DNA of 64,000 bases, from NCBI RefSeq assembly GCF_000427665.1, contig NZ_KE386572.1, forward strand, positions 4,526,373-4,590,372, given 5' to 3'. Shown piece after piece: positions 41,985-47,920 of this stretch (positions are counted from its first letter, which is position 1; the number at the start of each line of letters is the position of its first letter). The translations under genes and the position numbers were made by a program. The notes below the pieces were generated by a model, which saw only the letters and a list, made by a program, of their open reading frames with translations, did no database searches and was not told where the DNA came from. The DNA comes from Geminicoccus roseus DSM 18922. Lineage in GTDB: Bacteria; Pseudomonadota; Alphaproteobacteria; Geminicoccales; Geminicoccaceae.

Positions 41985-43250
41985 ATGCGCCGATCCACCA
42001 CCTTCATGGTCGCTGCGGCCGCAATCGCCCTGACGACATCCGCCAGGGCCGCCGAGCCGGGCCAGGTCGTGGCCACCTATGCCGACATCGCCGCCGCGAT
42101 GTATGCGGACGCGCTTGCGAGCGGCCAGGACCTGCACGCGGCGGTGGACGCCTTCCTGGCGTCGCCCTCGGAACAAACCCTCGCCCAGGCGAAGGATGCC
42201 TGGAAAGCGGCCCGGAACCCCTACCAGCAGACCGAGGCGCTGCGGTTCGGCAACCCGCTGGTGGACGAATGGGAAGGCAAGGTGAATGCCTGGCCGCTCG
42301 ACGAGGGGCTGATCGACTATGTCGACGCCTCCTATGGCGACAGTTCCGACGAGAACCCGCTCTATACCCTGAACGTGGTGGCGTCGCCGAAGCTGCGGAT
42401 TGGCCGCAACCTGGTGGATGCGAGCACGATCACGCCGGAGCTCCTGGAGAACGAGCTGCAGGAGGCCCTGGACGTCGAGAAGAACGTGGCGGTCGGCTAC
42501 CACGCCATCGAGTTCCTGCTCTGGGGGCAGGACCTGAACGGCACCGGGCCTGGCGCCGGGGCGCGGCCCTGGACCGACTACAGCCTGGAGCAGTGCACCA
42601 ACGGTCATTGCGAGCGTCGGCGTGCCTATCTGGAGGCGGCGGCGGACCTGCTGGTGTCCGACCTGCAGGAGATGGCGACCTCCTGGCAGGAAGGCGGCGA
42701 GGCTCGCGCCGACCTGCTCGGGATCGAGCCGCAGGCCGGGCTGGGCAGGATCCTGACCGGCATCGGCTCGCTGTCCTATGGCGAGCTGGCCGGCGAGCGG
42801 ATGAAGCTCGGCCTGCTCCTGAACGATCCGGAGGAGGAGCATGACTGCTTCTCCGACAACACCCACAACTCGCACTACTACGACCAGGTCGGCATGGTCG
42901 CCTTGTGGAACGGCCACTACGAGCGCACCGACGGCAGCGTCGTCGAGGGCCCGTCGATGGCGGACCTCACCAGGGAAAAGGATCCCGAGCTGGCCGAGCG
43001 GATCGAGCAGCGGATGAACGACACCACCGAGAAGCTCGGCCAGATCCGCGAGACCGCCGAGAGCGGGCAGATGGCTTACGACCAGATGCTCGCCGCCGAC
43101 AATGCCGAGGGCAACGCCATGCTGCAGGCGGCGATCGACGCGCTGGTCGCCCAGACTCGGGCTGTCGAGGAGGTGGTGCCGGCCCTGGGCGTCGCCATCA
43201 CCGTGGAAGGATCGGACAGCCTCGACGATCCGGGCATGGTGGCGCCCTGA
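41985..43250 (+). CDS. Imelysin-family (M75) iron-regulated protein
   Basis: A 421-residue periplasmic protein with a Sec signal (RRSTTFMVAAAAIALTTSARA). It has the imelysin GxHxxE motif in GYHAIEFLLWGQDL and the HNSHYYDQVGM block of IrpA-like proteins. Imelysins are linked to iron uptake; the Glu/His site may bind iron. The ATG at 41985 with AGGGG upstream fits the signal peptide better than the earlier in-frame start at 41895. It opens a five-gene operon. Confidence 0.88.
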   Translation: MRRSTTFMVAAAAIALTTSARAAEPGQVVATYADIAAAMYADALASGQDLHAAVDAFLASPSEQTLAQAKDAWKAARNPYQQTEALRFGNPLVDEWEGKVNAWPLDEGLIDYVDASYGDSSDENPLYTLNVVASPKLRIGRNLVDASTITPELLENELQEALDVEKNVAVGYHAIEFLLWGQDLNGTGPGAGARPWTDYSLEQCTNGHCERRRAYLEAAADLLVSDLQEMATSWQEGGEARADLLGIEPQAGLGRILTGIGSLSYGELAGERMKLGLLLNDPEEEHDCFSDNTHNSHYYDQVGMVALWNGHYERTDGSVVEGPSMADLTREKDPELAERIEQRMNDTTEKLGQIRETAESGQMAYDQMLAADNAEGNAMLQAAIDALVAQTRAVEEVVPALGVAITVEGSDSLDDPGMVAP

Positions 43251-43263
43251 TCCGGGATCCGCG

Positions 43264-44691
43264 ATGAAGGCCGCCAGGCGACCGTTTCTCCTGGGCGCCG
43301 GCGCGTTCCTTGCCGGCGCCGCCCTGCCGGAGACAGGCCGAAGCGGGCCGCTCGCCCGGCCCCTAATGCCCACCGGCCGCACCGTCGAGCACTGGCTGGT
43401 GGCGGCCGAGCGCATGGTCCGCATCCCGGCCGACGCGGGACCCGAGGTGCCGGCCTGGACCTTCGGCCCGGAGCCACTGCCGATGATCCGGCTGCAGCGG
43501 GGCGATTCCCTGCGCGTCCGGGCCGAAAACCGCCTCGACCAGCTCATCTCGATCCACTGGCACGGCATCCGGGTGCCGAACGCCATGGACGGCGTGCCCT
43601 ACCTGACCCAGGACCCGATCCGGACCGGCGGCAGCTTCGACTACACCTTCACGCCGCCCGATACCGGGACGTTCTTCTTCCACACCCACTGCAACACCAT
43701 CGAGCAGCTGGGCCGGGGGCTGGCCGGCGTGCTGATCGTCGAGGGCGACGAACTGGTGCGGCACGACGCGGACTTGGTCTGCGTGCTGCGCGACTGGCGG
43801 ATCGACGGGCAGGGTGGCTTTGCCGAGTTCACCAGCAACGCCGCCGCCGCCAAGGCCGGCACGTTCGGCCAGGTGCGCACCGTCAACGATCGGGTCGAGC
43901 CGGTCCTGGAGGTGCCGGCCGGCGGCGAAGTCCGCCTGCGCATCCTCAACATCGACCCGACCCGGATCGCCTTGCTGGGGTTGGAGGGCACCCCGGCCGC
44001 CGTGATCGCCATCGACGGCAACGGTCTTCCCCCAGTGCCGCTGGAAAGCTGGCGGCTGGGCCCAGCCATGCGGATCGACCTGTCGGTGCGGGCGCCCGGC
44101 CCCGGCGAGGAGGCGGTCCTCTATGACTATTTCTCGGCCGAACCGGTCCCGCTGGCGAGGCTGCGAGGCATGGGCCCACGTCTGGATCGCGGCAGGTTCG
44201 ACCCGGCACCCCTGATCCCGTCGGACTTCCCGGCGCCCGACCTGGAGAAGGCCGAGACCTTCCGCCTGACCTTCCAGTCCACCGCGGTTGCGAGCGACCT
44301 GGTCCTGCCCGACGGTCAGGTGCTGCGCTATGCCGACAGCATCTGCCTGTCCAGCGCCACCCTGTGGGCGATCGACCGCAAGACCTGGCCGGAAGCCGGG
44401 CACCAGCAGCTTCCGCCGCCTCTGTTCGAGCTGGTGAAGGGCAGGAGCTACGTGATCGAGCTGGTCAACCTGAGTCAGTACCAGCACCCGATCCACCTGC
44501 ATGGCGTCACCTTCCAGGTGCTGGACCCGCGCCAGGGCGAGTCCGGCCAGCGGGCCGACACGGTGCTGCTCGGCCCGCGCGACCGCGTCCGGATCGCCTT
44601 TGTCGCCGACAATCCGGGTGACTGGATGCTCCACTGCCACATCATCGAGCACCAGGAGACCGGCATGATGGGCTGGTTCCGGATCGCATGA
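43264..44691 (+). CDS. Multicopper oxidase
   Basis: A 475-residue laccase/ferroxidase-type protein with a Tat-like signal (MKAARRPFLLGAGAFLAGAA). All four copper-binding blocks are intact: HWHG, HTHCN, HPIHLHG and HCHIIEHQETGM, giving the type 1 site and the trinuclear cluster. It would oxidise a periplasmic substrate with O2, plausibly Fe(II) given the neighbours. It starts 13 bases after the imelysin stop and its stop overlaps the next start (ATGA). Confidence 0.92.
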   Translation: MKAARRPFLLGAGAFLAGAALPETGRSGPLARPLMPTGRTVEHWLVAAERMVRIPADAGPEVPAWTFGPEPLPMIRLQRGDSLRVRAENRLDQLISIHWHGIRVPNAMDGVPYLTQDPIRTGGSFDYTFTPPDTGTFFFHTHCNTIEQLGRGLAGVLIVEGDELVRHDADLVCVLRDWRIDGQGGFAEFTSNAAAAKAGTFGQVRTVNDRVEPVLEVPAGGEVRLRILNIDPTRIALLGLEGTPAAVIAIDGNGLPPVPLESWRLGPAMRIDLSVRAPGPGEEAVLYDYFSAEPVPLARLRGMGPRLDRGRFDPAPLIPSDFPAPDLEKAETFRLTFQSTAVASDLVLPDGQVLRYADSICLSSATLWAIDRKTWPEAGHQQLPPPLFELVKGRSYVIELVNLSQYQHPIHLHGVTFQVLDPRQGESGQRADTVLLGPRDRVRIAFVADNPGDWMLHCHIIEHQETGMMGWFRIA

Positions 44692-46800: not shown

Positions 46801-46801
46801 C

Positions 46802-47920
46802 ATGGACCAGGCACGCCGCTCGACCCTGGCCATGCTGGCCGGCCTGCCGTTCGCCGACCCGGTGCTCGCCATGGCGGCGGCGACCGACCATGGCGGTGCG
46901 GCGCCCCGCTGGCTCGGCTGCCGCACCGAGCCATTGGCCGGCGACGGTGCTGCCGGGATCAGGCCCGATGGCAGGAGCCCGTTCGCGATGCCGCTGCCGG
47001 CGCGCGGGCACAGCTTCGCCGTGCATCCGTCCCGCGACCTGGCGGTGGTGTTCGCCAGGCGGCCGGGCGTGTTCGCGGTGGCGTTCGACACGGTCACCGG
47101 CGAGCGGCTGGCCGTGTTCGAGGCGGAGGAGGGGCGTCATTTCGCCGGCCACGGCACCTTCAGCCCGAACGGCCGCCTGCTGCTCTCCGCGGAGAACAAG
47201 TTCGACACAGGCGACGGCGTTTTGGGCGTCTATGACGTCGAGGACGGCTTTCGCAAGCTGGCCGAGCTGCCGGCCCACGGGATCGGGCCCCACGACGTCG
47301 CGGTGATGCCGGACGGCAAGACCCTGGCGGTGGCGGTGGGCGGGATCCTGACCCACCCGCAGAGCAAGCGGCTGAAGCTGAACCTGGACACGATGCAGCC
47401 CTCCCTGGCGCTGATGGAAATGGAATCGGGCCGGCTGGTCGAGCAGTTCCCCCTGGAGGGCCAGCTGCACCAGCTGTCGCTTCGGCATCTCTCGGTCAAC
47501 GAGCGGGGCGAGGTGGCCTGCGCCTGCCAGTTCCAGGGCGATCCGGAGGCCGCGGTGCCGCTGGTGGCGATCCTGGGGGATGGCAGCCTTCGCCTGGCCG
47601 ACGGCTTCCGGCGCCGGGCGGCCGAACTGCACCAGTACACCGGCAGCATCACCTACGACACGAGCGGCGACTGGCTGGCGGTCTCCTGCCCGAAGGCCGA
47701 CCGGATCCTGATCCTGGACCGGCAGGGCGAGATCCACCACGAGGTCGCGGTGGTGGACGGCTGCGGCGTGGCGGCGGAGGGGCAGCCCGGGCGCTTTGTC
47801 GCCAGCGGCGGCACCGGCCGGCTGGTCTCCATCGACGCCCGGACCGGCCAGGCGACGCAGCTTGTCAGCGAGCCGCTGGCCTGGGACAACCATCTGGTGC
47901 CCCTGCACCTGCGCGGCTGA
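46802..47920 (+). CDS. DUF1513 propeller-like protein
   Basis: A 372-residue protein of the DUF1513 family, expected to form a beta-propeller: GHSFAVHPSRDLAVVFARRPG, GRHFAGHGTFSPNGRLLLSAEN, GIGPHDVAVMPDG and the C-terminal SEPLAWDNHLV block are conserved. A weak N-terminal signal is visible (DQARRSTLAMLAGLPFADPVLA). It ends the operon. Function is unknown, but DUF1513 is regularly found with imelysins and DUF1111. Confidence 0.87.
   Translation: MDQARRSTLAMLAGLPFADPVLAMAAATDHGGAAPRWLGCRTEPLAGDGAAGIRPDGRSPFAMPLPARGHSFAVHPSRDLAVVFARRPGVFAVAFDTVTGERLAVFEAEEGRHFAGHGTFSPNGRLLLSAENKFDTGDGVLGVYDVEDGFRKLAELPAHGIGPHDVAVMPDGKTLAVAVGGILTHPQSKRLKLNLDTMQPSLALMEMESGRLVEQFPLEGQLHQLSLRHLSVNERGEVACACQFQGDPEAAVPLVAILGDGSLRLADGFRRRAAELHQYTGSITYDTSGDWLAVSCPKADRILILDRQGEIHHEVAVVDGCGVAAEGQPGRFVASGGTGRLVSIDARTGQATQLVSEPLAWDNHLVPLHLRG

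What the first reader, a model, noticed from the sequence alone, without database searches (positions are those of the whole stretch)
41985..47920. Imelysin pair combined with a multicopper oxidase, a di-haem protein and DUF1513
The imelysin/DUF1111/imelysin/DUF1513 set is known but poorly understood. Here an intact Tat-type multicopper oxidase is inserted with overlapping stop/start. Together these could form a periplasmic iron oxidation and capture system analogous to EfeOB but without a permease. The second imelysin lacks the GxHxxE motif, so the two are not equivalent.
Basis: partly seen in the sequence, partly recalled or inferred. Interest (0 to 1): 0.55.

Follow-up and report, generated by a model that had tools for sequence, protein, structure and literature searches.

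The report
Iron operon with added copper oxidase
This is a copper-oxidase-bearing version of a widespread but poorly understood bacterial iron operon; the five-gene set travels as a unit through many alphaproteobacteria and probably oxidises and handles iron outside the inner membrane.

Summary
The five genes are real, intact and in the stated order. The start/stop overlap exists only between oxidase and di-haem gene; imelysin and oxidase are 13 nt apart. The order is not a local insertion: 43 of 79 loci fetched with the oxidase carry all five genes in this order, across several alphaproteobacterial orders. The common form lacks the oxidase: of 69 strong DUF1513 loci from 299 Pseudomonadota genomes, 2 have it. 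On a tree of three core proteins all 46 oxidase-bearing operons lie on one side of a fully supported branch; the window's own family relatives lie on the other. Iron is the likely substrate: iron boxes stand upstream of many relatives, the window has a one-mismatch Irr-type box 113 bp before the first gene, its genome encodes IrrA, and bacterioferritin genes lie inside several related operons. No FTR1 permease was found in this genome. DUF1513 is predicted to be a seven-bladed propeller with four histidines invariant in 106 of 106 sequences, a possible metal site. Ferroxidase activity and direction of the iron response remain untested.

The parts
41857..41871 (.). Irr-box-like palindrome ATGGAATAGTTCTAA, 113 bp before the first start codon
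   Evidence: one mismatch to TTNGAANNNTTCNAA; 28 such sites in the genome, 10 for the reversed control pattern; a box of this type within 2 mismatches upstream of imelysin A in 11 of 46 regions, shuffles mean 0.4
41985..43250 (+). imelysin A (ICMP-type, GxHxxE)
   Evidence: PF09375 289 bits; PDB 7xrx E 2.8e-117; GxHxxE residues in 108 of 108 aligned
43264..44691 (+). three-domain multicopper oxidase, twin-arginine-like leader, complete copper ligands
   Evidence: PF07732, PF07731; alignment A3; motifs
44688..45818 (+). DHOR/DUF1111 di-haem c-type protein; overlaps the oxidase stop by ATGA
   Evidence: PF06537 113.6 bits; both CxxCH invariant in 23 of 23
45823..46800 (+). imelysin B (IPPA-type, GxxxxE)
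   Evidence: PF09375 103.6 bits; E129 in 106 of 106, position 126 mostly Pro, Gly or Thr, no His among the five commonest
46802..47920 (+). DUF1513, twin-arginine-like leader, predicted seven-bladed propeller with invariant histidines
   Evidence: PF07433 347.7 bits; model pLDDT 89; H70, H117, H164, H229 in 106 of 106

Best explanation
This is an iron-responsive periplasmic (and perhaps outer-membrane) iron-handling operon, the oxidase-bearing clade of the imelysin-DHOR-imelysin-DUF1513 family. Inferred working: imelysin A captures ferrous iron. The Tat-exported multicopper oxidase oxidises it to ferric iron with oxygen. The di-haem protein acts as a peroxidase or electron relay. Imelysin B and the histidine-lined DUF1513 propeller hold and pass iron on. 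Ferric iron then enters through a separate transporter (ABC type), not through an FTR1 permease. Shown here: gene set, order, conservation, one-branch ancestry, iron-box and bacterioferritin associations, complete copper and haem-binding motifs. Inferred: substrate, order of steps, direction of regulation, and transport route.
For: Five-gene order in 43 of 79 oxidase loci. Oxidase-bearing operons form one side of a fully supported branch. Fur-type boxes within 6 mismatches upstream of imelysin A in 10 of 46 oxidase-type regions (shuffles mean 1.0), including two at 2 mismatches, and in 25 of 61 regions upstream of DUF1513-anchored operons (shuffles 16 of 305). Exact Irr-type boxes in 7 of 61. 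The own genome's only exact Irr-type site lies upstream of a bfd-like gene, an ABC ATPase and a ferritin-family gene; IrrA is encoded. Bacterioferritin lies between imelysin A and DHOR in 11 of 69 loci and a Bfd-like gene in 13 of 69; bacterioferritin lies inside one of six sibling-family operons. An Rrf2 regulator nearest RirA (below that model's cut-off) is divergent in Hyphomicrobium. R. sphaeroides irpA, bfd and bfr (RSP_1548-1546) rise 4.05-, 2.71- and 1.99-fold in iron-limited wild type (PMC3413700). The copper-island paralog is in a separate clade.
Against: No ferroxidase signature was tested; the oxidase falls below the cut-off of every functional NCBIfam model it touches. The window's box has a mismatch, is one of 28 in the genome, and is weaker in G. 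harenae. Two of five sibling operons have no Irr-type box. PMC3413700 states that Irr represses at low iron in species studied by then, which would suit storage rather than uptake. Sixty of 69 DUF1513-anchored operons do without the oxidase, and 34 of 79 oxidase loci lack the other four genes. The core proteins show almost no residue change tied to the oxidase.
Confidence: 0.55

Rival explanations
1. Iron detoxification or storage rather than uptake: the operon is derepressed by Irr when iron is plentiful, and the oxidase removes ferrous iron from the periplasm, limiting Fenton chemistry, with ferric iron parked on imelysins or passed to bacterioferritin.
For: Irr-type boxes and bacterioferritin neighbours; PMC3413700 says Irr represses at low iron.
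Against: Fur boxes in oxidase-type operons of Rhodospirillales and low-iron induction of irpA in R. sphaeroides; PMC10374146 passages say bhuA rises at low iron and falls in an irr mutant, so Irr can activate.
Confidence: 0.22
2. Copper protection: the oxidase is a CueO/CopA-like cuprous oxidase or laccase that happens to be co-transcribed with an iron operon, protecting it or supplying copper tolerance.
For: Best functional models are CopA and CueO, though far below cut-off; solved relatives are laccase-type; EfeM of P. syringae binds copper as well as iron and zinc (PMC9174327 abstract and passages).
Against: The genome already has a copper-resistance island with its own two oxidases, copper ATPase and SCO-like proteins (names by eye), and that paralog falls in another clade. 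Iron boxes and bacterioferritin surround the operon type; CutC was seen only near a standalone oxidase.
Confidence: 0.15
3. The oxidase is an electron partner of a di-haem c-type protein whatever the metal: the module oxidises a periplasmic substrate and hands electrons through haem to the oxidase or the reverse.
For: In 8 loci of a standalone branch the same oxidase family is next to another di-haem cytochrome c; the oxidase and DHOR genes overlap.
Against: The 8 loci form one clade, perhaps one event; no docking or redox data.
Confidence: 0.08

Closest known systems
P. aeruginosa PA4370-PA4373 Fur-regulated imelysin operon (ICMP, DUF1111, IPPA-type imelysin; DUF1513 for PA4373 is recalled)
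   Same: Two imelysins of the same two types around a DUF1111 protein; imelysin A is closest in the PDB to ICMP (7xrx) and imelysin B to IPPA (3pf0, weak).
   Different: No multicopper oxidase; the paper (PMC3143127, term search and passages) has neither 'copper' nor 'oxidase' in its main text.
R. sphaeroides irpA-bfd-bfr (RSP_1548-1546)
   Same: Matches the imelysin A, Bfd, bacterioferritin order seen in related loci; induced by iron limitation (PMC3413700). That RSP_1548 is imelysin A is inferred from name and tag order.
   Different: Bacterioferritin pair in place of the oxidase.
EfeUOB / EfeUOB-M
   Same: Uses an M75 protein and a haem protein for iron in the periplasm.
   Different: No FTR1 permease in the genome, no EfeO-type protein at cut-off, DHOR instead of a DyP peroxidase.
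Fet3p-Ftr1p of yeast
   Same: A multicopper oxidase tied to iron uptake (PMC9174327 passage).
   Different: No Ftr1-type permease; the oxidase's substrate is untested.

Membership tests
Imelysin (M75), ICMP type | M75 domain with GxHxxE | tested here: met
   PF09375 289 bits; GYHAIE; 7xrx E 2.8e-117
Imelysin-like, IPPA type | M75 domain with GxxxxE, second in operon | tested here: met
   PF09375 103.6 bits; GLGMAE; 3pf0 E 0.0045
DHOR/DUF1111 | PF06537 with two CxxCH | tested here: met
   113.6 bits over profile 272-498 of 499; two CxxCH
Di-haem peroxidase (CCP/MauG) fold | shared fold | tested here: inconclusive
   Only two Foldseek hits under 1e-3, hydrazine synthase gamma and MauG, TM 0.33-0.45; CCP by profile E 0.006
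Multicopper oxidase | four-copper ligand set | tested here: met
CueO / CopA equivalogs | NCBIfam cut-off | tested here: not met
   118 of 525 and 154 of 479 bits
Ferroxidase | oxidation of ferrous iron | not testable with these tools
   needs assay
EfeUOB | FTR1 permease | tested here: not met
   no PF03239 match in the genome, 99% complete
EfeUOB | EfeO equivalog | tested here: not met
   29 bits against 270
EfeUOB | DyP-type EfeB | not tested
   none in the operon; genome not searched
Irr regulon | IrrA encoded | tested here: met
   NF045678 180.9 bits, cut-off 150
Irr regulon | Irr box at promoter | tested here: inconclusive
   one mismatch, one of 28 sites
PA4370-4373-type operon | imelysin, DHOR, imelysin, DUF1513 in order | tested here: met

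The most novel reading that the evidence does not exclude
A distinct, co-inherited periplasmic iron-oxidation chain: a copper oxidase oxidises iron for two non-equivalent imelysins, and DUF1513 is an unrecognised metalloprotein whose seven-bladed propeller carries an iron or copper site made of invariant histidines, one in each of five innermost strands. Iron then enters without an FTR1 permease.
Probability: 0.25. Interest if true: 0.72.

Novelty: new variant of a known kind. Interest (0 to 1): 0.52.

Why it matters
Imelysin operons are common and iron-regulated, yet their proteins have no agreed job. An oxidase-bearing clade, and relatives with bacterioferritin in the same place, give natural contrasts: the same four core proteins with a copper oxidase, with a ferritin, or with neither. 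That makes the direction of iron redox chemistry and the role of DUF1513 directly testable. In the held library no paper holds the word DUF1513. Four papers hold at least two of imelysin, multicopper oxidase and DUF1111 (listing); I read passages of two of them (PMC3143127, PMC9174327) and saw no such operon there.

Tried and rejected
Inserted by chance: rejected, conserved at one position. Copper-resistance gene: the copper paralog sits in another clade and on a copper island. Replacement of DHOR or an imelysin by the oxidase: no loss of conserved residues linked to the oxidase in the core proteins. ModE-like gene 47989-48333 as part of the operon: found downstream only in Geminicoccus (3 of 3), so left out. 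FeoB: PF02421 gave only weak hits, best 48.7 bits, which I read as other GTPases without testing them. Genome-wide Irr-type sites other than the window's and the bfd one: 26 one-mismatch sites listed, no clear iron gene seen by eye, genes not annotated. Sigma-70 promoter scan: none found. The first motif script used a wrong oxidase start (43265), so its empty copper motifs are void; redone. Rodionov's alphaproteobacterial iron regulon paper (recalled) is not held. Foldseek's and VIA-align's lists for DUF1513 are filled with propellers of many functions, so the fold alone says nothing of function.

Dropped rows: L079 fragments (under 300 residues) from the oxidase tree; loci missing any of three genes, or with a piece of 150 residues or fewer, from the concatenated tree; the weak DUF1513 places were not fetched. 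In one search, 42 of 111 rows were chosen by hand, and the 'family together' group was named after the first tree was seen. Sampling bias: oxidase-bearing loci came from a search by oxidase, the others from a search by DUF1513; the 2 oxidase-bearing ones found by DUF1513 fell on the oxidase side. Counts of boxes include close relatives.
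Full report
What is there. The window lies in a Geminicoccus-type genome: its oxidase is 76% identical to that of G. harenae and 72% to that of G. flavidas. Five + strand genes run from 41985 to 47920: imelysin A, a three-domain multicopper oxidase, a DHOR/DUF1111 di-haem protein, imelysin B and DUF1513. Junctions are a 13-nt gap, an ATGA overlap, 4 nt and 1 nt, so one transcript is likely (inference). Oxidase and DUF1513 start with twin-arginine-like leaders (by eye, no predictor run). All copper ligands and both CxxCH are present.

Conservation. The one scan of genome contigs with the oxidase gave 79 loci. Profiles built from them found the five genes in this order in 43 of 79: 41 plain, one with a doubled imelysin B (L035), one with DHOR in two frames (L046). 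L048 has imelysin A and oxidase only, L059 runs off its contig, and 34 have the oxidase without the others. The 43 span Hyphomicrobiales, Rhodospirillales and Geminicoccales, 8 of them unassigned. As a control I took DUF1513 in 299 Pseudomonadota genomes. Of 76 with a match, 69 strong loci other than the window were fetched. The four-gene order without oxidase was found in 60 of 69 (2 with a doubled DHOR), with oxidase in 2 of 69, and 7 of 69 show no imelysin A within reach.

Ancestry. A tree of imelysin A, DHOR and DUF1513 joined (111 rows) puts all 46 oxidase-bearing operons on one side of a branch with support 100 and 65 without it on the other (FastTree). IQ-TREE on 42 of these rows agrees, support 100. 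Five operons from other genera of the window's own family are on the oxidase-free side. Holding them together with Geminicoccus is rejected (p-AU 0.002). So the window's operon was probably gained from another lineage, or is an old parallel copy kept by few. In the oxidase tree (87 rows) operon-borne and 26 standalone oxidases form one group of 74. The label needs at least 5 changes, so the oxidase has left or joined the operon more than once. C143 and C361 are shared by that group in 25 of 27 aligned rows and absent from the two copper-type rows (by eye).

Iron evidence. Upstream of imelysin A, an Irr-type palindrome within 2 mismatches is in 11 of 46 regions (shuffles 0.4), and a Fur-like box within 6 in 10 of 46 (shuffles 1.0). 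L084 and L087 have a Fur box 2 mismatches from the E. coli consensus (consensus recalled). In the 61 usable DUF1513-anchored regions, 7 have the exact Irr-type motif and 25 a Fur-like box within 6. The window has ATGGAATAGTTCTAA at 41857-41871. In the whole genome the relaxed motif occurs 28 times, 10 times when reversed. The single exact site precedes a Bfd-like gene (PF04324, 24.3 bits, just under its cut-off), an ABC ATPase and a ferritin-family gene. The genome has two FUR-family genes, IrrA and a Zur-like one. Bacterioferritin lies between imelysin A and DHOR in 11 of 69 loci and a Bfd-like gene in 13 of 69 (one bacterioferritin confirmed by TIGR00754). A ferritin-family gene lies between imelysin B and DUF1513 in one of six sibling-family loci, and divergent from the oxidase-bearing operon in L053. 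Kaistia-type loci carry a ZnuA, ABC-3 and ATPase set divergently upstream (9 loci for ZnuA and 9 for ABC-3). Twelve loci, mostly Hyphomicrobium, carry a divergent Rrf2 gene; the one scanned has RirA as best model, below cut-off.

Published data. In R. sphaeroides irpA, bfd and bfr have consecutive tags RSP_1548 to 1546, and irpA rises 4.05-fold at low iron in wild type and 19.66-fold in an irr mutant (PMC3413700, section read). This matches the imelysin A-Bfd-bacterioferritin order seen here; that they are the same operon type is inferred. The same paper says Irr represses at low iron, while passages of PMC10374146 describe an Irr-dependent rise of bhuA at low iron. The direction of control in Geminicoccus is therefore open.

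Mechanism. Most likely the operon captures ferrous iron and oxidises it outside the inner membrane. Imelysin-like EfeM binds iron, copper and zinc (PMC9174327 abstract and passages). The oxidase would supply ferric iron using oxygen. DHOR's nearest folds are hydrazine synthase gamma and MauG, weakly. DUF1513 is modelled as a propeller (pLDDT 89), a fold shared with many proteins, among them nitrous oxide reductase, selenium-binding protein and hydrazine synthase beta. H70, H117, H164 and H229 are invariant in 106 of 106 aligned, and H364 is in 100 of 106 with 6 gaps. By the strand order, which I read as seven blades, each falls in the first strand of a blade. No FTR1 gene was found; ABC-3 permeases exist elsewhere in the genome. 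None of this proves ferroxidase activity.

Verdict. I found no description of the oxidase-bearing clade in the held library (searches, read as listings; passages as cited). It is a new variant of a known kind.

Noticed in passing
window 37167-41227, - strand: Two different glutamine synthetase genes (type I at 37167-38639, type II-like at 39003-40052) follow a PII-like gene near 40886-41227; names are from sequence recall, not searched.
   Followed up: no
window 41478-41553, 48336-48410, 48578-48653: The operon lies between a tRNA-His gene and tRNA-Gly/tRNA-Lys genes, which may bear on how it was gained; G+C is slightly higher over the operon.
   Followed up: partly
window 47989-48333: A short ModE-like DNA-binding gene follows DUF1513 in all three Geminicoccus loci.
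   Followed up: partly
L050, L052, L060, L061, L065, L069, L085, L110: Standalone relatives of the oxidase lie next to a di-haem cytochrome c instead of the imelysin operon.
   Followed up: partly
L210 (G000:C2:44000-63000): Copper-resistance island with two further multicopper oxidases, a copper ATPase and SCO-like genes (names by eye).
   Followed up: partly
L118, L139, L141, L144-L148, L151, L153, L161 and L230: Bacterioferritin gene inside the imelysin operon, in two different places.
   Followed up: yes
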